A DNA stretch of 64,000 bases from Bacteroidota bacterium (GTDB lineage: Bacteria > Bacteroidota > Bacteroidia > Palsa-965), in the NCBI GenBank assembly GCA_020402865.1, contig JADBYT010000018.1, positions 1 through 64,000 of the forward strand. The letters run 5' to 3'. Below, in pieces: positions 583 to 12,845 of the stretch (position 1 is its first letter; each line of letters starts with the position of its first letter). The notes below the pieces were generated by a model, which worked only from the letters and a program-made list of their open reading frames with translations, ran no database searches and was not told the DNA's origin. The position numbers and the translations under genes were made by a program.

Positions 583-1101
583 ATGACCATTGCTGATGTG
601 TTGGCCGGCAAAGCCACCAAACCCAAACAAAAAACGGAATTGCTGAGCAGTATGCTGCTCAACAAACAAATTACACCCGCTCAGCTTACTGAGTTTGCAG
701 CATCAGCAAAAGACCCGGCAAAAGCCACCTGCATTGAGGCACTTGAGTTTGCCACTATGCAGCAGCCTGAAATTGCAGATGAAGCGGCTTTTTCATTCGT
801 AATTACCACACTGGCAGCCAAAGCGCCCCGCATTAAATGGGAATCGGCAAAAGTGATTGGTAATACGGCATCACTTTTCCCAAACAAACTCGACGAAGCC
901 ATTGCCGCATTGCTGGGCAATACTACACACACCGGCACCGTAGTGCGCTGGAGCGCGGCATTTGCCCTCAGCGAAATACTCAAACTCGGCACCCCACATC
1001 AGAAATCATTGCGCCCTGCGCTGGAACAGGTGTGCGAAAAGGAAGAAAAAAACAGCATCCGCAAAATTTACCTCGCTGCATTCAAAAAAGCGGGCAAATA
1101 A
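583..1101 (+). CDS. HEAT-repeat protein
   Basis: A 172-residue, mostly helical, soluble protein without a signal peptide. Paired amphipathic helices with the HEAT rhythm are visible: stretches such as RWSAAFALSEILKLG, preceded by DEAIAALLG and KWESAKVIGNTA. HEAT proteins are protein-binding scaffolds, so a partner is expected, but the sequence does not name it. It lies 8 bases upstream of a pentapeptide-repeat gene in the same direction, so the two are probably co-transcribed. No catalytic motif is seen. Its specific function is unknown. Confidence 0.7.
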   Translation: MTIADVLAGKATKPKQKTELLSSMLLNKQITPAQLTEFAASAKDPAKATCIEALEFATMQQPEIADEAAFSFVITTLAAKAPRIKWESAKVIGNTASLFPNKLDEAIAALLGNTTHTGTVVRWSAAFALSEILKLGTPHQKSLRPALEQVCEKEEKNSIRKIYLAAFKKAGK

Positions 1102-2050: not shown

Positions 2051-3487
2051 ATGGCATCGCCTGTGAATTCCTATTCTTCTCTTGCCGCCGTTCGTGCGGA
2101 TTTATTCAGCGGCCGTGTAACCTGCGCCGCATTGGTTGAGGCATATATCGAGCGCATTGCGGCCAATACGCACCTCAACATTTTCCTCGAAGTTTTTGCC
2201 GACACCGCCCGCGCGCAGGCCAAAGCGGTTGATGCCAAAGTAGCCGCCGGTACTGCCGGTGCGCTTGCAGGCATGGTGATCGGCCTCAAAGACAATATCT
2301 GCGTAAACGGGCACAAGGTCTCGGCCTCGTCAAAAATCCTCGAAGGCTTTGTTTCGCCCTACACATCTACCGTGGCGCAACGCCTGCTCGATGCCGATGC
2401 CATAATCATTGGCCGCACCAATTGCGACGAGTTTGCCATGGGCAGCTCCAACGAAAACTCGGCTTTTGGCACCGTAAAAAACCCGCACGACATTACCCGC
2501 GTACCCGGCGGCTCATCGGGCGGTTCGGCAGCAGCCGTGGCGGCCGATCTCTGTCTGGCCACACTCGGCACTGATACCGGAGGCTCAATCCGTCAGCCAG
2601 CCTCGTTTTGCGGCGTGGTTGGGCTTAAGCCTACTTACGGACGGGTATCGCGCTGGGGCATCATTGCCTACGCTTCGTCGTTCGATCAGGTGGGGCCCAT
2701 TACTAAAAATGTGGACGATGCCGCTGCCATTCTCGAAGTCATTGCCGGTATGGATGAATACGACGGCACACTGTCGTCGCAGCCGGTTGAGACTTACACG
2801 CAAAAGCTCGATGCGCCCAAAGCCTTACGCATTGCTGTGCTCGACGAAGGCCTGAACAGCGAAGGGCTCGACACCGAAATACGCGCCACCATGCACAAGC
2901 GTATTGAGCAGCTGCGCGCGCTCGGCCACACGGTAGAAACGGTGAAGTTTCCCTATCTCGATTACCTCGTGCCTGCGTACTACGTGCTCACCACTGCCGA
3001 GGCATCAAGCAACCTCGCCCGTTTCGACGGCATCCGCTACGGCTACCGCAGCCCCAATGCCACCGACCTCGAATCAACCTACAAAAAATCGCGCAGCGAA
3101 GGCTTCGGGCCTGAGGTAAAACGCCGCATCATGCTGGGCACTTTTGTACTCAGCGCCGGCTTCTACGATGCTTATTACTCCAAAGGCCAGAAAGTACGCC
3201 GCCTGCTGCGCGACAAAACCAACGAAATTCTGGCGCAGTACGATGCCATTTTGCTGCCCAGCACGCCCGGAGCAGCATTCCAGTTCGGCGCCAACTCCGC
3301 CGATCCCATCAAAATGTACCTCGAAGACATTTTCACCGTGCAAGCTAACCTCACGGGCATTCCGGCCATTTCAGTTCCCGCCGGTAAAACCGCTGCCGGT
3401 TTGCCTTTCGGGGTACAGCTGATGAGTGCCAATTTTACCGAGAGCAAATTGCTGGCACTGGCTAAGGTGGTGGAAGCGTTGGGGTAA
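2051..3487 (+). CDS. gatA: Asp-tRNA(Asn)/Glu-tRNA(Gln) amidotransferase subunit A
   Basis: A 478-residue amidase-signature protein. The Ser-cisSer-Lys triad is visible: Lys80 in GLKDNI, the glycine/serine loop GGSSGGSA around 153-160, and the nucleophile Ser179 in TDTGGSIRQP. As GatA of the GatCAB complex it releases ammonia from glutamine to amidate Glu-tRNA(Gln) and Asp-tRNA(Asn) in the cytoplasm. Length and C-terminal motif (GIPAISVPAG, GLPFGVQLM) are normal. gatB and gatC are not adjacent, which is common. A strong hairpin terminator follows the gene. Confidence 0.95.
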   Translation: MASPVNSYSSLAAVRADLFSGRVTCAALVEAYIERIAANTHLNIFLEVFADTARAQAKAVDAKVAAGTAGALAGMVIGLKDNICVNGHKVSASSKILEGFVSPYTSTVAQRLLDADAIIIGRTNCDEFAMGSSNENSAFGTVKNPHDITRVPGGSSGGSAAAVAADLCLATLGTDTGGSIRQPASFCGVVGLKPTYGRVSRWGIIAYASSFDQVGPITKNVDDAAAILEVIAGMDEYDGTLSSQPVETYTQKLDAPKALRIAVLDEGLNSEGLDTEIRATMHKRIEQLRALGHTVETVKFPYLDYLVPAYYVLTTAEASSNLARFDGIRYGYRSPNATDLESTYKKSRSEGFGPEVKRRIMLGTFVLSAGFYDAYYSKGQKVRRLLRDKTNEILAQYDAILLPSTPGAAFQFGANSADPIKMYLEDIFTVQANLTGIPAISVPAGKTAAGLPFGVQLMSANFTESKLLALAKVVEALG

Positions 3488-3543
3488 AGAATTGTAAGTA
3501 AGAAATCACGAAAACAACCCGAAAAGCATAATTCAATCATAGA

Positions 3544-3578
3544 ACCAGCAGCAGGCAAAACCGGCTGCTGGTTTTTTA
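3544..3578 (+). terminator. rho-independent terminator after gatA
   Basis: ACCAGCAGC at 3544-3552 pairs with GCTGCTGGT at 3564-3572 (9 bp, 11-base loop) and is followed by a T run. It closes gatA and separates it from the atypical DNA that follows. Confidence 0.85.
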
Positions 3579-3846
3579 TTTGTGTTTTCTGTATTAGCAA
3601 GCTGTTTTTCAGGCTGCACGCGGCGTAATCTTTAATACAGGTGTTAAGAAGTGGATGTAGTACAAAAAAGCTTATTTTGTACTTGAAAACAAGTAGGCTT
3701 TGTTTTCTGTCAACCTCAACCAGAAATAACTTAACACGAAGAAAAATCTGCGTTACATGTTTACGTAAACGATTTGACTTCATCTATAAAACTCCTTTGT
3801 GCGGGTATTGCCAGCACAACTACTGTATTACGTAATCAAAAAAGGT
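3579..3846. other. gene-free stretch with three inverted repeats
   Basis: This AT-rich stretch between gatA and the EEP gene shows no convincing gene. It holds GTACAAAA/TTTTGTAC (3660-3682, 7-base loop), GAAAACA/TGTTTTC (3685-3707) and the perfect palindrome GTTTACGTAAAC (3759-3770). The first two could be adjacent RNA stem-loops, or operator-like or recombination sites at the edge of the accessory block. I see no T run after them, so they are not obvious terminators. Confidence 0.5.
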
Positions 3847-5115
3847 ATGAACGAATTAAAATGTATGTTTTGGAATGTGCGGAATCTTACGCTTCAAATG
3901 AGCCGGAAAGGAAAACAAGGAGGACTCATTAAGCCTAATCAAAGGATTAATGCTATTTGCAAATTAATGGTGAGCTACGACCTTAATTTTTTGCTTGAAA
4001 CTGGAGATAAAAGAATTGATTATCAAATTAAACAATATATAAAATATCAAATAGGGGCTAAATATCAATTATTAACTATAGACACTTTCGGGGAATCGTA
4101 TTTTATCATTTATGACGAAAAAAAATGCTGTTTTGATCAAAACGGTCTTTTTGGTTTGACAACGATTAAATCAACGAAAATTCGGCAGGGCTTTTGGGTT
4201 AAACTAAAACAGACCAACTTGGTTTTTGCCGTATTACACGCCCCATCTCCTTCTATGCGAGTAGAAGATAGAGCACAAGTTATACAGGCCGCAAAACAGC
4301 AACTTTTAACGGCACGTCAACAAAAATATAATGTAATATTTTTTGGCGACTTAAATTTCAAACGAACAGAGTATGGTAAAATTCGGGAGAGCTTAAACCC
4401 TGATTTTACGCATAGAGGCCCTTTTGAACTTGACAACACCACACCATTAAAAACAAGCTTAAAAACATTTCGGACAATAATTAAAAGTGGTGACGAAGAA
4501 AGTCAGCCTTATGATCAGGTTTGGCTCAGCAAAGCAAACGTTGGCGAACCACAAATAAACCTTAAAAATGTTAAGAAACCAGAAAACGTGTATTCAATAT
4601 TAACATTTCCGGTGACTATAGAATTTATTGAAAATGGGCTGTTAAAAGATTTAGAAGATGATGTCAAAAACTATTGTAGTTATTTATATTTAAAAACAAA
4701 AAGACATCAATATAACGGGTCGTTTGTGTCCCTGAGTCATGAACTCGGTTATTTGCAAACATCAATACAAGACTATAAGAAATTATATACATCAAAAACA
4801 TACTTACTAAGTGCAACAATAAAAAAAACGTGGCAAGAAATAGATGAATTGTTGATCTATTTTTCAAATAAAAGAATAATAAAATATCGAAATGAAGGTA
4901 GTCTTGATTTTTCAATTTCTGAATTAAAAAAAGCTAAATTATCACGTTATCAATATGAAACAGTAGTCAAAGATATTATTAGTACAAGAAAAAAGATCGA
5001 TATAATATCCGCCTATTTGGAGGATAAGGATGATAAAGTAAAGGATCTTAATGCAGCCTGCTTTGAATACGGCATGAGCGACCACTTTCCTATTGAATTT
5101 ACTGTTCAGTATTGA
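3847..5115 (+). CDS. endonuclease/exonuclease/phosphatase (EEP) fold protein with helical insertion
   Basis: I choose the ATG at 3847 because the EEP fold begins at once (FWNVRNL, with metal-site Asn10). The frame is open back to 3799, but those residues look non-coding. Other fold marks are Glu51 (LLETG), His131 (VLHAP), Asp168 and Asn170 in FFGDLNF, Asp223 in YDQVW, and the closing Asp412-His413 pair in MSDHFP. This is the DNase I/exonuclease III superfamily, which cleaves phosphodiester or phosphate bonds with Mg2+. About 160 residues of Lys/Tyr-rich helical sequence (about 245-405) are inserted before the final SDH motif, which is unusual. There is no signal peptide. The gene is far more AT-rich than gatA or the downstream genes, suggesting transfer. 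The substrate is unknown. Confidence 0.75.
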   Translation: MNELKCMFWNVRNLTLQMSRKGKQGGLIKPNQRINAICKLMVSYDLNFLLETGDKRIDYQIKQYIKYQIGAKYQLLTIDTFGESYFIIYDEKKCCFDQNGLFGLTTIKSTKIRQGFWVKLKQTNLVFAVLHAPSPSMRVEDRAQVIQAAKQQLLTARQQKYNVIFFGDLNFKRTEYGKIRESLNPDFTHRGPFELDNTTPLKTSLKTFRTIIKSGDEESQPYDQVWLSKANVGEPQINLKNVKKPENVYSILTFPVTIEFIENGLLKDLEDDVKNYCSYLYLKTKRHQYNGSFVSLSHELGYLQTSIQDYKKLYTSKTYLLSATIKKTWQEIDELLIYFSNKRIIKYRNEGSLDFSISELKKAKLSRYQYETVVKDIISTRKKIDIISAYLEDKDDKVKDLNAACFEYGMSDHFPIEFTVQY

Positions 5116-5175
5116 TTAAGCCTCATAAGTCATTGTTGCAGCATCATTCTCATTTAATCTTCAACACGCATTCAG

Positions 5176-8100
5176 ATGGTATTTAGCGAAATAGAAGCGA
5201 AGGTAAAAAACCAATTAGCAGGCAGCACGTTTTTCATTACGCAGAACGATTTGCCGGGCATTGCCACAGAAAAGATGTTTCGTGATTTTTTCCCGACACT
5301 TCGGCTCGACCTTACACTTGTTAACGCAGCGTATTCTGAATCGGAAATAGTGGTAAGCGGAACCTTGCAGCAGGAGTTTTTGGGCGTTTCGAATTTACGG
5401 GCGCAATTATTTTTCAGTGTAAAGGATGATTCTCCCCGACTTCGCATACGGTTCAGCAATTTTCCCGAAGACTGGCACATAGCAAAAAGCATCCCTTTGC
5501 TTGCAGATACAGCCGTAGCCGAGCCGCCTTATTTTCAGCCGGTATTTGAGCTTGATTCCGCAAATGAAAATCCGTTACCGGAAGATTTTCAGCTTCCTTG
5601 GGGGTATAAACCCGACCCGATTATTGCTGAAACCAGTATTAAGCGAGGTCTCACATTCGAGGCAAAAGTTGCGCTAAGAAATTTACCCCCGTCGTTTTCA
5701 TGGCTGGCGCTTTCAAGTACAGTTGAGCATATAACTATAGGCGGGCCAATTGAAATAAGAGACGGATTCCCGAAACTTTGGTTCAGCAGCAGTAGTTGGG
5801 ATTTTGGCATAAATGATATGACACTGCCGCTGGTTTTGCAAGTGGTGGCATTGCTGCCCGATGGTAATGCCTTTCGGGGCAATGATGTTCCTGTTGACTT
5901 TGGCCGGCTTGAAACATACATCAACAGAACGCTTAACGGGCAGTTGTTCCGTATTCCGCTTGCGGCTTCTTTTGGCGCAATGCAAACGCTGTTTCTAAAC
6001 CTCGAAAGCGATTTCGGGATAAATACTCAGCCATTATTACTGAGTGACCTTGCCGCGTTAATCGGGCTTCCTGAGGCTGATTCGCTTTTCCCGGAATTTT
6101 TTCCGCAGCCGGAAAATCTTTCACTTCAAAAAATCGGGTTCGATCTTCTTACAGATCCTCCCGGCTTGCAAAGTGCGTATGCCGAAATAGCAACCTCGTC
6201 GGTAATCCGGCTTTTTACCAACCGGCTTGTGCTTTCCGGAATGAGCGCCAAATTTATTCTGAGTGCCGATGAAGATGGGTTGCCCTCAGGCAGCGCAGTG
6301 CTCTTTATGAAAGCAGCATTTCTGGGCAACGAAATGGAGGGTTACCTTACACTTCCTCAGGGCGATTTGGGCTGCTACATTGCCGAAGGTCAAACGGTTG
6401 ATCTCAAGCCACTGGTTCAGAACATACTGGGTGTTGAACTTGACGAAATGCCTGACGCGGTTTGTACCGACTTCAATTTCGGAGCAAGTGTAACCGAGCA
6501 AACGTTTTCCCTGTCGGGAGAAATACAGCAGAACTGGAATATTAATCTTGGTGGTGAAGTTGCTGTATTTAAAAAGCTACAGTTTGAAATACAACGTGAT
6601 CGAGAAGAACTTCCTGCAGAAACAGAAGAAGCGCCGATTGTTTACACTTACCCGGTTTCCGGCCGTATATACGGAGAGCTTCAAATTGACGAAATTCTGT
6701 TTTATGCCAGTGCCTATCTAAATTCTGCAGCAGAGGGCTGGGTGTTTGAATGCGGAAATTACGAAGGCGATTTACCGGTAACTAAACTTGTAAATAGTGT
6801 AGGCAACGCATTTGGAGCAACAGCCGAGTTTCCGATACCCGATGTGTCGGTGTATAACTTGAAGCTAAGGTTTGAAAAAAACACAAAGCACTTTAGCATT
6901 AAAGCGTATGTAAAAACCAACGAACCAATAAGTATCGGGCCTGCTGTTTTTAATGTGATTACGTTTATTGACCTGAACAGTAAAAAAAATCCGGCCACTG
7001 GAAAAACGTCAATTGCCGGTAATATCGAATGCCGGATTGCTATCGGCGAAGCCTTGTTCACCGTCTCGTACGTCATCGGGAACAACAAATTACTTTCAGG
7101 CGCGTGGCAAACGACTGATGGAGAAACAATATCGCTTGCAGATTTTGTAGCATTATTTGGAATTGATGCCTTACCGGAGTTGCCGGTTGATTTTCACTTT
7201 TCAAAGGCATCGTTTTCGTATAGAAGCGATAAAAAAGAATTTACATTAGCCGCAGTTTCCGATGAATTTGGAGATGCCTCACTTCGCGCATTTCAGGACA
7301 CGAATAAAAAATGGTGTTTTGAATTTGCTATGAAATTGGGCAGTATCACCAAACTACCGGTTATTGGCGAACAGCTTAAAGAACTGGGTGATATTGTAAA
7401 AGAGGTAAGTCTTCAGATCAATTCGCCGGCAGGTACAAAACCATATCATGTTGCTCTTGGCGTAGGAGTCGGGTTGCCTGAAGAGTTGAACATGCTGTTT
7501 GGCGCCGATAAAAACGGAGCACCAAAATACCGCATTTTCAAAACATACGATTCACAAAATCCGGGCTATACAATTATTGATACACGTTTCACCCGAAACG
7601 AAACCGGAACCCGGCTTCAGTTGCTTGACAGTCCGTTGCAAAGTGTAGATGCCGTTGTGCAAAACGGTAAAACCTGGCTGCCATTTGATTTTGGTGATTG
7701 TGGCGCTGGCCGCATCGAAATGCCGACGTTTAGCTATAACGAGGCCGCCCGAAGTTTTTCTGCCTCAGGAGGATTTGAAATTACACGCACACTTGCCATT
7801 CCTCTCAGACTACTAAAAAGCCTTTTACAGAATTGTGGCCTGGATGTTTTGAATAAAGCATTGCCTGATACGATTCCGCTGCGCGATATACGACTTGTGG
7901 ATGCAAGCGGGAATTTCCGCTTTTCCGAATTGAATGTGCCGCCGGCCGTTGCAGACGTGCTTAAAATAATTAACAGCAGAACCGATAAGCTGCCAGATCG
8001 TTTCAAGGCATACTTCAATATCGCTATACCCAAAGCGCTTTCGTTTGAAATAGCCTATGGGCAAGGCCTCAGCAACCTTATGCTGAAGCTGGCTGTACCA

Positions 8101-10140
8101 GATGAAAATGAACCGGTGCGAATTTTATTGTTTGCTTCCGGCGCATTTATCGGCCTTGAGTTAAAGAGCATTTTAGTTGGAGAAGCCGTAAGGGGCAAAA
8201 TGATGGTGCTTGAAGTGGATGCCAAGATTGATTTTTTTGATATTCCCACACTCCTCGCGGCTGCGCTTATTCCCTCCGGATTTGAGCAGATATTACCCCC
8301 AACAGCCAGCCTGCATAAAACGATTGTATTAAAAAAACTGCTTTCTGTTATTGCCATTGGCGCCGCTAATCCAATGCCTGTGCCGGTGTTTTATGATGAA
8401 CTGAGTTTGAATTATTCTGGTTTCGAAGGATTTCAGATACGGTCAGAATTTCGTTTTCCCAAACCATCGGGCGGAGCTCAAGGGCTTGCCGGTGTGTTGC
8501 AACAGATGACTGATTTTCTTCTCAAACCCGGCTTTCTGCTCGATCCGAATAAATCGCCATTTATCACGCCGGTTAATTTTACCCTAGGGCCACAATATGT
8601 GAAACTACCGAACTATCTCGGACAGGTTACACTGGGTGAAACGAGCAATTTAATTTCAGTGGCGGTATATGAAAACATTGCACATGGCTTAAACTGGCTA
8701 AAAACATTCAGAATAGAGGAGCTCATACGAAGTATTCCCATTGATAAGCGGGTGGGTAGTTTGAGCTTTTCTTTTGCATTCTTTTCGTTTAATGCAGCAT
8801 GGCTGGTGACCACCGGGAAAGAACTAAAAGACGGAGCATATCAGAAAATTAATCTTTCAACAACCGATATAGAAAGTGTTGTACGTCCGCTATCAATATC
8901 GCCCTCTGCACAAGACAAGTCTCTTGCAGTGTTTCTGAAAGGACAGGCAAATCTCGGATTCGTTAAACTCGATGCCGTTTACGGGTTGCTCGGATCGCCA
9001 TTGAGCAACTTCGCAAGTGCATTTCGATACACTGGCACATTCATCGATTTTCTGGCCGCATCATTTGCCGGTTATGTTACAATTGACCCTGGGGCAAAAG
9101 CAAACCAATGGTTTATCATGGGCGGAGCCGCCGATTTGAAAATCGGACAGACATCAGTAATTAAAGGAACGTTCTCTGTAAGCCCTGCCGCATTTAATGT
9201 GCAGGCACAACTTGATCTATTCCCGGATAATCCATTGGTGCGTATTACCGGCGAGGTGAGCGGCGCACTTTCCAAAACAAAGTTTGAGCTAGCCGGAAAA
9301 ACGGCTGTTAAGATTGGCGGGGTTAATCTGATGGATGGTACAGTAAGCATAACAGCAACCGGATTTATTATTTCCGGGAAGTGGCTTACAATGCAGCAAC
9401 AGTTCAGGATTGTTGAAAGAGCCGGGTTCCCGGAATTATCAGGCACTACTTCTTTTAATGTAGAACTTGATCTTGATCTTTTGGAGCTTGACAGCGTCCT
9501 GGGCCTGATTCCCGGCTTATCCGGACGGGTAAATATGTCGAGAATTAAAACTGCAGTAACAATGAACACCACAATTACCAAAAAGGGATTTCATTCCTCA
9601 GTAAGCGGCAAGTTTGATTTTGCGGGCAAGTCTTTAAGCTTTGCTTCCTTTACACTTACCGTTGCACCCTCTTCAATTGAGGAAGTGGCCGAAAAAGTAG
9701 CACGAGAGGTAGCTGCAATTATTGAAAACATGGCTGTAGATTTTGCAGCAATTATTAATATGGCTGCTGGTCAAATTGTTAATGCTGCGGAAGAAACTGC
9801 AGCGTTTACAGTTAACGCGGCAAATGCCGCTTACCGTGAAGGAGAGAAGCTTGTGAATAATGCAGAGATTGCAGGCCGCCTTACTATAGATGCAGCAGGC
9901 GTTGCTGCAAACGCAGTGAGCAATACCGCGCAGGATGTAGCCAAAGAAATAGCTCAGATCGGACAGGAAATAAGTAATGTAAAGGGTCTGGCAACGAGTA
10001 TCAGTAATGCGGCTGTAAATACGTTGAGCTCAGGCATAGGAAGTATTAAATCAGGATTCACAAGCATCGGCGGTTTTGCCACAAGCATTGGCAAAACGGC
10101 AATATCAGCAATAGGAGATTTTTTCGATGATCTTTTTTGA
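5176..10140 (+). CDS. giant beta-repeat protein of unknown function (1654 aa)
   Basis: I do not recognise this protein. It has no signal peptide and no enzymatic motif. Most of it is alternating short beta strands with recurring units of the form 'sLxxLvxxxg...LPelp...f.f....fsY....k.FsLsg'. Clear examples lie near residues 407-450, 532-578 and 652-695; about ten more degenerate ones may follow. The last 156 residues (from 1499) change character: an Ala/Asn-rich, probably amphipathic helical region, then a Gly/Ser/Ile-rich tail ending in a Phe/Asp cluster, which could insert in or lie on a membrane. Repetitive beta modules ending in an amphipathic segment recall large scaffold or lipid-groove proteins, but that is inference. 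It is 61 bases after the EEP gene and 103 bases before the Vps62-like gene, on the same strand. Confidence 0.8.
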   Translation: MVFSEIEAKVKNQLAGSTFFITQNDLPGIATEKMFRDFFPTLRLDLTLVNAAYSESEIVVSGTLQQEFLGVSNLRAQLFFSVKDDSPRLRIRFSNFPEDWHIAKSIPLLADTAVAEPPYFQPVFELDSANENPLPEDFQLPWGYKPDPIIAETSIKRGLTFEAKVALRNLPPSFSWLALSSTVEHITIGGPIEIRDGFPKLWFSSSSWDFGINDMTLPLVLQVVALLPDGNAFRGNDVPVDFGRLETYINRTLNGQLFRIPLAASFGAMQTLFLNLESDFGINTQPLLLSDLAALIGLPEADSLFPEFFPQPENLSLQKIGFDLLTDPPGLQSAYAEIATSSVIRLFTNRLVLSGMSAKFILSADEDGLPSGSAVLFMKAAFLGNEMEGYLTLPQGDLGCYIAEGQTVDLKPLVQNILGVELDEMPDAVCTDFNFGASVTEQTFSLSGEIQQNWNINLGGEVAVFKKLQFEIQRDREELPAETEEAPIVYTYPVSGRIYGELQIDEILFYASAYLNSAAEGWVFECGNYEGDLPVTKLVNSVGNAFGATAEFPIPDVSVYNLKLRFEKNTKHFSIKAYVKTNEPISIGPAVFNVITFIDLNSKKNPATGKTSIAGNIECRIAIGEALFTVSYVIGNNKLLSGAWQTTDGETISLADFVALFGIDALPELPVDFHFSKASFSYRSDKKEFTLAAVSDEFGDASLRAFQDTNKKWCFEFAMKLGSITKLPVIGEQLKELGDIVKEVSLQINSPAGTKPYHVALGVGVGLPEELNMLFGADKNGAPKYRIFKTYDSQNPGYTIIDTRFTRNETGTRLQLLDSPLQSVDAVVQNGKTWLPFDFGDCGAGRIEMPTFSYNEAARSFSASGGFEITRTLAIPLRLLKSLLQNCGLDVLNKALPDTIPLRDIRLVDASGNFRFSELNVPPAVADVLKIINSRTDKLPDRFKAYFNIAIPKALSFEIAYGQGLSNLMLKLAVPDENEPVRILLFASGAFIGLELKSILVGEAVRGKMMVLEVDAKIDFFDIPTLLAAALIPSGFEQILPPTASLHKTIVLKKLLSVIAIGAANPMPVPVFYDELSLNYSGFEGFQIRSEFRFPKPSGGAQGLAGVLQQMTDFLLKPGFLLDPNKSPFITPVNFTLGPQYVKLPNYLGQVTLGETSNLISVAVYENIAHGLNWLKTFRIEELIRSIPIDKRVGSLSFSFAFFSFNAAWLVTTGKELKDGAYQKINLSTTDIESVVRPLSISPSAQDKSLAVFLKGQANLGFVKLDAVYGLLGSPLSNFASAFRYTGTFIDFLAASFAGYVTIDPGAKANQWFIMGGAADLKIGQTSVIKGTFSVSPAAFNVQAQLDLFPDNPLVRITGEVSGALSKTKFELAGKTAVKIGGVNLMDGTVSITATGFIISGKWLTMQQQFRIVERAGFPELSGTTSFNVELDLDLLELDSVLGLIPGLSGRVNMSRIKTAVTMNTTITKKGFHSSVSGKFDFAGKSLSFASFTLTVAPSSIEEVAEKVAREVAAIIENMAVDFAAIINMAAGQIVNAAEETAAFTVNAANAAYREGEKLVNNAEIAGRLTIDAAGVAANAVSNTAQDVAKEIAQIGQEISNVKGLATSISNAAVNTLSSGIGSIKSGFTSIGGFATSIGKTAISAIGDFFDDLF

Positions 10141-10243
10141 GGTTGCCAGGCAAGGCTAGCTACCATCAAGCATACACAGAATTGTTCTCCGCGAAGCGGG
10201 AATCAAAAAACAGAATTGAAAAACAGTAACAAAAAGACAGTTT

Positions 10244-11146
10244 ATGACCACAATAATCATCAAACAGAAAATCAGCTCTCCAAAGGTAAAGGCAGAGGTA
10301 AAGAATGTGGTAGATGCAGCTAAATTGCGAATTGATAAAGCAGAAAAAATAACACGAGAAACACAAAAGCCAGAGGCTATTATTGAACAGGCTAAACAAA
10401 AAGCCAGCGAAATAGAAGCAAAGGCGCTTCTGCAGGCCACAAAGGTGAAAGCTGACGCTGAGAAAATTCTTATAGAAAATGAGGCCTTACTGGCGTCCAA
10501 GAAAAACGAACTTAAAGCGGCAGAAACAGAACTTTTGAAAGCGAAAGAAAAGCAGGAAAGAACATCTCAGATTAACGGACTGCTGCAACTTACCAACGAT
10601 CTTACGCGCGTATGGTGGGATAAAGGAAGTGGGGCAAAAGGCAGTATTTCATTGTATATACCTGATCCTGAAAAGGGCTATGCAATTCTCGGCCACACCG
10701 GTTATCCGAGCTATAAAGCGCCTAAAAGCAGTTTTGGCGTAATTACATTTAACACTAAAAACAGTTTTATTAAATGGAAACATCCGGTTGACTATGAAAG
10801 GGTTTGGAAAGATTCCGGCTCAGGTGCTGATCAGGATGGTGCAATATGGCGCCCAATCCCGCCATCAGGCTATGTGGCCATGGGCATGATGGCTTCGCGC
10901 GGACACAGCAACAAACCGTCTGAAAAAGCCATGGTATGTATCGAAAAAAAATTCACGAAAGCGATCAAAGCGGATAAGTCGTGTTTACTCTGGAACGACA
11001 AAGGCTCTGGTGCCGACAGAAATGTATCCCTTTGGTTTAATTCGCAACTGGGCACCTTCTGGGCACACGCCAGCCATCGTGTGCCATCAGGCGAAGTTAT
11101 TCATGTGTTTGATATGGAAATGATTGAAAAGACATTATCGCAATAG
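10244..11146 (+). CDS. coiled-coil protein with three Vps62-like repeats
   Basis: A 300-residue protein with two parts. Residues about 15-108 are a long Lys/Glu/Ala heptad-rich coiled coil. Residues 121-300 hold three copies of a Trp-rich module: VWWDKGSGAKGSISLY (from 123), VWKDSGSGADQDGAIW (from 187) and LLWNDKGSGADRNVSLW (from 248), the first two followed by a GYxxLG or GYxxMG strand. The D-x-GSGA...S/W pattern is that of the Vps62/DUF946 family, known from fungi, plants and scattered bacteria and also seen as a module in some VPS13 proteins. No signal peptide is seen. It shares direction and composition with the giant gene upstream, and a terminator follows at 11289, so the two probably form one transcript. 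The biochemical role is unknown. Confidence 0.75.
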   Translation: MTTIIIKQKISSPKVKAEVKNVVDAAKLRIDKAEKITRETQKPEAIIEQAKQKASEIEAKALLQATKVKADAEKILIENEALLASKKNELKAAETELLKAKEKQERTSQINGLLQLTNDLTRVWWDKGSGAKGSISLYIPDPEKGYAILGHTGYPSYKAPKSSFGVITFNTKNSFIKWKHPVDYERVWKDSGSGADQDGAIWRPIPPSGYVAMGMMASRGHSNKPSEKAMVCIEKKFTKAIKADKSCLLWNDKGSGADRNVSLWFNSQLGTFWAHASHRVPSGEVIHVFDMEMIEKTLSQ

Positions 11147-11288
11147 CGTACTGCTCCCCAAACAGATCAGCGTATTAATCATTACCCGGTATAGCAATGT
11201 GCATGAAATCTCTTAACACTCTTTAACCCAAAACATTCGACGAACGCCCCTTGCACATCTCCCTCAAAATGCGATATTTGTAAAACAA

Positions 11289-11313
11289 GGCATACCACAA
11301 CGGTATGCTTTTT
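11289..11313 (+). terminator. hairpin terminator before mltD
   Basis: GCATACC (11290-11296) and GGTATGC (11302-11308) form a perfect 7-bp stem with a 5-base loop, followed by five T. It lies 143 bases after the Vps62-like gene and 36 bases before the mltD start, so it closes the accessory block. Confidence 0.75.
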
Positions 11314-11348
11314 CGTTGAATACAAGGAATTTAACCCAGAAACGGCCA

Positions 11349-12845
11349 ATGACATTACGCTTCCTGCCACTGCTTGCCGCACTGCTGCTTGCCTGCTCCG
11401 TTCAGGCGCAACAACCCGATCCGCCGCGCTTTCCCGACGATCAGGTGGCTGCAATGCTGGATAGTCTGGCGCGTAAATCATACCTGGCGCGTTTGCCCCG
11501 GCAGCCGCAACGGCAGGGCAATAAGTTTCACTATGCGGCTGATTCCGTGCCCCGCCCCGATGCCGTGGTGATGGAAGCCCGCCTGGGCCGACTCAACAGC
11601 CAGTCGCCATTTGATCTTGTGTATAACAACGATGTGCAGGCCTACATTAATCTCTATACCCTGCGCAAACGGGCTTCGGTGGAGAAAATGCTGGCGCTTT
11701 CGCAGTTGTACTATCCCATGTTCGAGCAGCAGCTCGACAAATACAATCTCCCGCTCGAACTTAAACACCTTGCCGTTATCGAATCGGCGCTCAACCCTTC
11801 GGCTACATCCAAAGCCGGTGCACGCGGCCTCTGGCAGTTTATGTACACCACCGGCAAAATGTACGGCCTTGAGGTGACTTCCTATGTGGATGAGCGTTGT
11901 GATCCGTACAAATCCACCCAGGCCGCCTGCGAATACCTCAAAGCTCTTTACGGCATGTTTGGCGACTGGCAAATGGTACTTGCGGCTTATAACAGCGGGC
12001 CGGGAACAGTTAACCGAGCCATCCGTCGCGCAGGTGGCGGCAAAAAAACATATTGGGAAATTCGCCCTTTTCTTCCACTTGAAACGCAAGGCTATGTGCC
12101 CGCATTCATCGCTGCCAATTACGTAATGAATTACCATGCAGAGCACAACCTCTTTGCCTCCGTGCCCCGCAAAACATTTATTGAAGTAGATACGGTAGCT
12201 GTGAAGCAGCAACTTACTTTCGGACAAATAGAAGCCGTGCTGGGTGTGCCGGTTGATGAGCTGCAGTTCCTCAACCCCATGTATAAACTGGGTGTGATTC
12301 CGCTATCGCTCAACGAGCCTTATACGCTGGTGCTGCCGGCCTCTAAAGTGGGCAACTTCGTAGCCAACGAAGAAGCCATTTATAATTACATCAAAAAAGA
12401 CAGCACCCTTGCCGCCGATACATACGTGCAGGTGAAAAAAGTACACACAGTGAAAAAGGGCGAACAAATAAGCACCATTGCCCGACGCTATAAATGCACC
12501 GTGGCCGACATACGCGCATGGAATAACTTAAAGAGCAACACGCTGCGTCCCGGACAAAAACTCACCATTTATACGCCCGTAAAAAGTCCCGCCACTGCAG
12601 CCCCCGAAACCACCACGCAGACACCGGCGGCTACCACGCAGCCAACACAAACAACTTCGCAGCCCCCGGCTACTGTAAAACCAGCTACCGGATCCTTTAC
12701 ATACTACACCGTAAAAAACGGCGATAACCTCTGGAAAATAGCCCAGAAATACGGCACCACGGTTGACGAAATCAAAAAGCTGAACGGATTCGGAGCGAAC
12801 TATAAACTCTATGCCGGGCAGAAAATTAAAGTGAAGAAAAACTAA
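11349..12845 (+). CDS. mltD: membrane-bound lytic murein transglycosylase D-like, two LysM domains
   Basis: The ATG at 11349 gives a proper signal peptide ending ...LACSVQAQQ. The Cys there is not in a good lipobox, so the protein may be soluble in the periplasm. The SLT domain spans about residues 110-270, with catalytic Glu145 in AVIESALNPSA and the motifs GLWQFM and AAYNSGPG. Two LysM peptidoglycan-binding modules follow (about 360-410 and 450-498), separated by a Thr/Pro/Gln linker. The enzyme cleaves the MurNAc-GlcNAc bond and leaves a 1,6-anhydro end during wall growth and turnover. At 498 residues it is of usual size. A J-domain gene follows 26 bases later. Confidence 0.9.
   Translation: MTLRFLPLLAALLLACSVQAQQPDPPRFPDDQVAAMLDSLARKSYLARLPRQPQRQGNKFHYAADSVPRPDAVVMEARLGRLNSQSPFDLVYNNDVQAYINLYTLRKRASVEKMLALSQLYYPMFEQQLDKYNLPLELKHLAVIESALNPSATSKAGARGLWQFMYTTGKMYGLEVTSYVDERCDPYKSTQAACEYLKALYGMFGDWQMVLAAYNSGPGTVNRAIRRAGGGKKTYWEIRPFLPLETQGYVPAFIAANYVMNYHAEHNLFASVPRKTFIEVDTVAVKQQLTFGQIEAVLGVPVDELQFLNPMYKLGVIPLSLNEPYTLVLPASKVGNFVANEEAIYNYIKKDSTLAADTYVQVKKVHTVKKGEQISTIARRYKCTVADIRAWNNLKSNTLRPGQKLTIYTPVKSPATAAPETTTQTPAATTQPTQTTSQPPATVKPATGSFTYYTVKNGDNLWKIAQKYGTTVDEIKKLNGFGANYKLYAGQKIKVKKN

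What the first reader, a model, noticed from the sequence alone, without database searches (positions are those of the whole stretch)
5176..11146. Candidate undescribed system: giant beta-repeat protein plus Vps62-repeat partner
A 1654-residue, signal-less protein of repeating beta units with an amphipathic C-terminal tail is followed in the same direction by a protein with a coiled coil and three Vps62-like repeats, with a terminator after the second. Vps62 modules also occur in VPS13-type lipid-transfer proteins of eukaryotes. The pair may therefore be a bacterial membrane-associated scaffold or lipid-handling complex. The EEP gene upstream may be a third component. I infer this from order, composition and repeats; no function is shown.
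Basis: inference. Interest (0 to 1): 0.75.

Follow-up and report, generated by a model that had tools for sequence, protein, structure and literature searches.

The report
Foreign cassette: nuclease-like enzyme, giant, tripod
Three neighbouring genes in an uncultured Bacteroidota genome (a nuclease-like enzyme, a 1654-residue protein of unknown function and a target-recognition protein) arrived as a foreign block, and relatives of the giant protein elsewhere also sit behind exchangeable nuclease- or protease-type enzymes, which looks more like a microbial conflict system than the lipid-transfer complex first suspected.

Summary
The genes are real. The giant ORF is 5176-10140, the partner 10244-11146, with an EEP-fold enzyme upstream (3847-5115). 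The lipid-transfer reading fails: the 'three Vps62 repeats' are one beta-tripod domain, as in the insecticidal protein GNIP1Aa, and 'Vps62' is a documented misnomer. The 'terminator' lies in the leader of the next gene, mltD.

The three genes are an insertion: gatA and mltD are direct neighbours in seven relatives, and the three have the lowest GC3 of 27 long ORFs. The giant has one clear relative, in a same-genus MAG. There it follows an MBL-fold enzyme resembling defence nucleases (LmuA, Avs1a), and that genome has no beta-tripod gene. A ~50-residue motif ties the giant to DUF6603 giants, of which 4 of 27 directly follow an MBL enzyme and 5 a protease; one, in the window's own genome, lies downstream of two EEP-fold enzymes.

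Best reading: an exchangeable hydrolase, a giant scaffold or sensor, and here a beta-tripod recogniser, probably a conflict module. Function, fold and expression are untested; AlphaFold failed (pLDDT 35-38). Confidence: about 0.8 foreign block, 0.6 enzyme plus giant as a unit, 0.35-0.4 conflict role.

The parts
3847..5115 (+). EEP-fold (endonuclease/exonuclease/phosphatase) enzyme, 422 aa from ATG 3847 (ORF listing gives GTG 3799); catalytic motifs intact, ~185-residue insertion between the YDQV and SDH motifs
   Evidence: PF22669 E 6.7e-5; motifs; GC3 0.273, lowest of 27 long ORFs of the window
5176..10140 (+). giant beta-rich protein, 1654 aa, no signal sequence; core aa 755-1400 (nt 7438-9375) shared with the same-genus giant
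   Evidence: no Pfam, NCBIfam, PADLOC or PDB match; homologue in G006/JAAFIA010000083.1 E 8e-35
6772..6915 (+). ~50-aa unit (aa 533-580: short helix, iP, beta hairpin) shared with N-terminal parts of DUF6603 giants
   Evidence: profile built only from DUF6603 giants ranks this and the G006 giant first (8.9 and 8.6 bits; best of the controls 3.8)
9670..10137 (+). amphipathic helical tail of the giant (aa 1499-1654)
   Evidence: hydrophobic moment profile
10244..11146 (+). coiled-coil/helical N-terminus (aa ~1-110) plus beta-tripod ('Vps62', PF06101) domain (aa ~119-272), 300 aa
   Evidence: PF06101 3.7e-14; 6fbm E 1.6e-24; three DxGSG motifs
3488..11272 (.). inserted block between gatA and mltD (limits approximate)
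   Evidence: gatA and mltD adjacent (137-539 bp between the aligned coding ends) in seven relatives of three genera
3557..3575 (+). terminator-like hairpin after gatA, separating it from the block
11273..11313 (+). GATATTTG promoter-like element plus leader hairpin of mltD; right-hand host side of the insertion, not a terminator of the tripod gene
   Evidence: same element before mltD in relatives without the block

Best explanation
The locus is a horizontally acquired three-gene accessory module: an enzyme with an intact EEP (phosphodiesterase/nuclease) active site, a giant, probably cytoplasmic beta-rich protein, and a coiled-coil beta-tripod protein. The giant is a distant relative of a wider set of giants (DUF6603 type) and, with the G006 giant, shares their habit of sitting behind exchangeable hydrolases: MBL nuclease-like, EEP, subtilase, trypsin-like. 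The most likely mechanism is that the giant is a long scaffold and sensor that holds the hydrolase inactive, the beta-tripod protein (oligomerised by its coiled coil) recognises a target, and recognition releases the enzyme to cut nucleic acid or another phosphodiester substrate, as a conflict/defence effector. Shown here: the insertion, the intact motifs, the beta-tripod homology, the recurrence of an enzyme upstream of giants. Inferred: joint function, scaffold/sensor role, enzyme substrate, conflict role.
For: Empty site in seven relatives and the three lowest GC3 values of the 27 long ORFs in the window (1 in 2925 for an arbitrary trio). The G006 giant directly follows an MBL-fold enzyme that matches LmuA 1.4e-19 and RTasMBL 1.4e-18 and Avs1a 1.2e-11. 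Among 375 ORFs in the surveyed neighbourhoods the five with an MBL motif (HxHxDH or HxDxDH) all lie directly upstream of a giant, and the three with the EEP motif set all lie upstream of a giant: the window's and a tandem pair upstream of a DUF6603 giant in the window's own genome. Subtilases (L038, L040, L094) or trypsin-like proteases (L029, L037) lie upstream of others. The shared 50-aa unit ties the window and G006 giants to DUF6603 giants. MBL nucleases with trypsin-like proteases are a known interchangeable pool across unrelated antiphage systems (PMC12799240).
Against: No direct functional evidence. The window proteins match no PADLOC defence family (the EEP's only hit, BrxF at 0.016, is negligible). 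The two EEP lineages are not detectably homologous to each other beyond the superfamily. About 16 of 27 DUF6603 giants have no recognised enzyme nearby, and one is preceded by recG. Homology of the giant to DUF6603 giants rests on a short motif; profile-profile comparison of whole proteins is not significant. No integrase in the block. The EEP gene differs in GC3 from the other two (0.27 against 0.41-0.42), so it may have joined separately.
Confidence: 0.4

Rival explanations
1. Chance accumulation: the gatA-mltD gap is an insertion hot spot and the three genes are unrelated cargo that arrived separately.
For: The same gap in G006 carries a different insert, an SDH/ClpP-like protease gene (PF01972 8e-19) and a small ORF. 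The EEP gene is much more AT-rich than the other two. The beta-tripod gene is absent from the G006 genome.
Against: Same strand, short gaps (60 and 103 bp), nothing else in the block, and an enzyme directly before the homologous giant at a different locus in G006. Giant and tripod share GC3 (0.410 and 0.417).
Confidence: 0.25
2. Toxin or antagonism complex released from or exported by the cell: the beta-tripod aims the giant/enzyme at eukaryotic or bacterial surfaces, as in the insecticidal MACPF protein GNIP1Aa.
For: Closest solved relative of the tripod is GNIP1Aa, where the domain is proposed as target recognition (PMC8624791). Vibrio plasmid Vps62 genes lie near aegerolysin and HBL/NHE-type genes. 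The G118 DUF6603 cluster carries tail-collar and S74-chaperone proteins, and a Paenibacillus one lies ~10 kb from a baseplate gene.
Against: No signal sequence, MACPF or secretion module in the block. Sheath-like genes in the searched DUF6603-bearing genomes lie on other contigs or about 70 kb away, and several of these genomes show none.
Confidence: 0.2
3. One reading: a membrane-associated scaffold or lipid-transfer complex of VPS13 type.
For: Alternating beta pattern over most of the giant and an amphipathic C-terminal tail; beta-tripods do occur as accessory domains in some VPS13 proteins (PMC7613979).
Against: The Vps62-VPS13 link is a naming artefact. No RBG, VPS13, AsmA or TamB family match. 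The upstream enzyme resembles nucleases/phosphodiesterases, and the one in G006 resembles defence nucleases. No structural support.
Confidence: 0.07

Closest known systems
DUF6603 giants (PF20248, function unknown)
   Same: giant beta-rich proteins of about 900-3200 aa, a part of them behind an exchangeable hydrolase gene; share a ~50-aa N-terminal unit with the window giant
   Different: the window giant has no DUF6603 domain, has a helical tail, and lacks the partner proteins (families c1/c2 or c3/c4) found beside DUF6603
MBL 'gated' nuclease modules of Lamassu, AVAST, Hachiman and DRT (PMC12799240)
   Same: an MBL-fold nuclease-like gene immediately upstream of a large partner, as at the giant of G006; interchangeable enzyme pool
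   Different: the window itself has an EEP enzyme, not MBL; no STAND, SMC, helicase or RT partner, no fused trypsin domain recognised
beta-tripod domain of GNIP1Aa (PDB 6fbm)
   Same: three DxGSG lobes, 186-residue alignment, E 1.6e-24
   Different: no MACPF domain; a coiled coil instead
VPS13 bridge-like lipid transfer proteins
   Same: some carry beta-tripods as accessory domains (PMC7613979)
   Different: no RBG or VPS13 family match in the giant; the resemblance is by a misnamed domain only

Membership tests
DUF6603 (PF20248) | DUF6603 core domain above the Pfam cut-off | tested here: not met
   no PF20248 hit at E<=1 in the window giant; most true members score >400 bits
DUF6603 (PF20248) | N-terminal helix-iP-hairpin unit seen in members (not an official criterion) | tested here: met
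   8.9 bits, first of all non-DUF6603 proteins; best control 3.8
beta-tripod / 'Vps62' (PF06101) | profile score above cut-off and three DxG[ST]G motifs | tested here: met
   52.4 bits against 22.1; motifs at 126, 190, 252
VPS13/RBG lipid-transfer proteins | RBG/VPS13 family domains | tested here: not met
   no such Pfam hit at E<=1
VPS13/RBG lipid-transfer proteins | continuous hydrophobic beta groove | tested here: inconclusive
   AlphaFold pLDDT 38 and 35, not interpretable
EEP superfamily | catalytic motifs N, E, H, DxN, D, SDH in order | tested here: met
EEP superfamily | Pfam score above the curated cut-off | tested here: not met
   23 against 27 bits; PDB search by sequence also finds no EEP
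known anti-phage systems (PADLOC) | signature proteins | tested here: not met
   no credible hit for the three window proteins
MBL gated-nuclease modules | MBL nuclease in the same operon | tested here: not met
   absent in the window block; present before the G006 giant
MACPF toxins of GNIP type | MACPF domain | tested here: not met
   no MACPF hit
extracellular contractile injection system cargo | sheath gene in the cluster | tested here: not met
   sheath-like hits of G000 and G006 are on other contigs

The most novel reading that the evidence does not exclude
An undescribed class of immune or conflict systems built on giant beta-rich proteins (DUF6603 type and this type), each coupled to an exchangeable nuclease or protease, with a beta-tripod recogniser in this variant.
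Probability: 0.3. Interest if true: 0.8.

Novelty: new variant of a known kind. Interest (0 to 1): 0.5.

Why it matters
DUF6603 giants are found in Bacteroidota, Actinomycetota, Bacillota and Pseudomonadota and have no known function; the held paper library has no paper naming them. A recurring pairing with exchangeable nuclease- or protease-type enzymes would be a first testable clue. The case also corrects a naming trap (Vps62) that points annotators to lipid traffic, and gives a clean natural experiment: a compact three-gene block with empty sites in sister genomes.

Tried and rejected
Lipid transfer via Vps62: rejected as a naming artefact. Direct search for relatives of the giant in plasmids, phages, viral contigs and 395 genomes each of phylum and class: nothing except G006 and a weak DUF6603 hit. 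AlphaFold of core aa 755-1400 and of aa 379-775 with a two-row alignment: pLDDT 38 and 35, not interpreted and not sent to fold search. Self-repeat detection: no significant repeats. Single-seed repeat profile from the window: found only itself. Homology of the window EEP with the C13 EEP pair: not detectable beyond motifs. Relatives of the EEP in 59 genomes and plasmids: none. Search with the G006 MBL at E<=1e-10 in 296 genomes: empty, threshold probably too strict. Contractile injection cargo: sheath genes not linked. PDB profiles of DUF6603 giants and two partner families: no hits. Direct repeats at the insertion ends: each end was searched separately and none was seen that both ends share.

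Full report
WHAT IS THERE. The window is part of contig C18 of a 4.9-Mb genome. Its one close relative with a homologue of the giant, G006, corresponds to a record titled 'MAG: Bacteroidetes bacterium ... WN_Bacteroidetes_4' (contig JAAFIA010000083.1). Three same-strand genes lie between gatA (2051-3487) and an mltD-like lytic transglycosylase (11316-12845): an EEP-fold enzyme (3847-5115), the 1654-residue giant (5176-10140) and a 300-residue protein (10244-11146). The gaps are 60 and 103 bp.

THE 'VPS62' PROTEIN. PF06101 matches at 3.7e-14, but the informative match is PDB 6fbm, the insecticidal MACPF protein GNIP1Aa, over residues 87-272 at 1.6e-24. Three motifs D-x-G-S-G-x3-[DNS] at residues 126, 190 and 252 fit the published beta-tripod signature D-X-G-S/T-G-X3-D, a target-recognition domain (PMC8624791). 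[quoted passage not shown] So the 'three repeats' are one three-lobed domain, and the lipid-transfer inference has no basis in homology. The domain is preceded by a charged helical stretch of about 110 residues.

THE GIANT. No Pfam, NCBIfam, PADLOC or PDB match. Sequence repeats are not significant by self-comparison. One clear homologue was found: a protein of more than 2350 residues in the same-genus genome G006 (E 8e-35, aa 761-1383), which runs off its contig. Searches of 395 phylum and 395 class genomes and two pattern scans of the 84,980-species collection added only a weak DUF6603 hit. Those pattern scans have low sensitivity for divergent proteins.

LINK TO DUF6603 GIANTS. The weak hit, in G118, is a 1583-residue protein with a full DUF6603 domain (2e-144). 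To test the link independently, a repeat profile was built from DUF6603 giants only and run on the rest. The window giant (8.9 bits) and the G006 giant (8.6 bits) came first and second, the best of the control proteins 3.8 bits. With them included the unit reads as helix, iP, beta hairpin. Whole-protein profile comparison is not significant, and the DUF6603 core itself is absent from the window giant. The window giant is therefore treated as a distant relative, not a member.

THE ENZYME SLOT. In G006 the gene just before the giant is an MBL-fold enzyme that resembles LmuA (1.4e-19), RTasMBL (1.4e-18) and Avs1a (1.2e-11). Such MBL nucleases were recently shown to be part of an interchangeable nuclease-protease pool in Hachiman, AVAST, Lamassu and DRT systems (PMC12799240). 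In 27 DUF6603 giants examined, the gene directly upstream is MBL in four (L006, L027, L030, L033) and a subtilase in three (L038, L040, L094); trypsin-like proteases lie in the two genes upstream in two (L029, L037). A tandem pair of EEP-fold enzymes lies a few genes upstream of one in the window's own genome (L036). Among the 375 ORFs in these neighbourhoods, all five with the MBL motif sit directly upstream of a giant; with about 29 such positions, chance is of the order of 3e-6. The three ORFs with the full EEP motif set all sit upstream of a giant. This is a small sample, collected around giants; about 16 of 27 loci show no recognised enzyme, and one is preceded by recG.

THE INSERTION. 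gatA and mltD are direct neighbours in G002, G003, G004, G007, G008, G010 and G011, with 137-539 bp between the aligned coding ends. In the window they are 7.8 kb apart. In G006 the same gap holds a different insert of about 1.4 kb with an SDH/ClpP-like protease gene, so the gap is a hot spot. The three genes have the lowest GC3 of the 27 long ORFs of the window: 0.273, 0.410 and 0.417, against 0.43-0.65 for the rest. The hairpin called a terminator follows a GATATTTG element found in the same place before mltD in relatives, for example GATATTTG in G006 and G007 and ATCTTTG in G002, G003 and G004, so it is part of the mltD leader. That this element is a Bacteroidota-type promoter is from my own knowledge of the TAnnTTTG consensus.

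PAIRING TEST. G006 has a giant but no PF06101 anywhere in a 97%-complete genome. Four annotated Vps62 loci on plasmids of other phyla show no giant listed beside them. So giant plus tripod is not a conserved pair; giant plus upstream enzyme is the recurrent arrangement.

MECHANISM AND VERDICT. Best-supported reading: an accessory module in which a giant scaffold/sensor is coupled to an exchangeable hydrolase, here EEP, with a beta-tripod recogniser, most likely for conflict. Shown: insertion, intact catalytic motifs, tripod homology, recurrence of enzyme before giant. Inferred: contact between the proteins, autoinhibition, substrate, conflict role. Structure prediction with two rows failed and was not used.

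Noticed in passing
L036 and L037 (G000 contig C13, 25000-64800): The window's own genome carries two further DUF6603 gene clusters of different types (partner families c1/c2 and c3/c4); one lies downstream of two tandem EEP-fold enzymes, the other of trypsin-like proteases.
   Followed up: partly
L071 (G006:C125, between gatA and mltD): The gatA-mltD gap in G006 holds a different insert of about 1.4 kb encoding an SDH/ClpP-like serine protease (PF01972) and a 76-aa ORF: an insertion hot spot.
   Followed up: partly
L031, L032, L033, L034, L041 and L037, L038, L039, L040, L043: DUF6603 giants are followed by conserved large proteins with no Pfam family (families c1 and c2, or c4 and c3 here); some clusters add S74-chaperone or tail-collar proteins.
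   Followed up: partly
L011 (Vibrio campbellii plasmid): A Vps62-related (beta-tripod) gene lies close to an aegerolysin gene and an HBL/NHE-family gene.
   Followed up: no
window 583-1101 and 1032-1682: A HEAT-repeat-like ORF overlaps the called start of a pentapeptide-repeat ORF; the second start is probably further downstream.
   Followed up: no
L032:12026-12526 (minus strand): A weak GIY-YIG nuclease match (E 0.0011, below cut-off) directly upstream of a DUF6603 giant, a possible further nuclease type in the enzyme slot.
   Followed up: no
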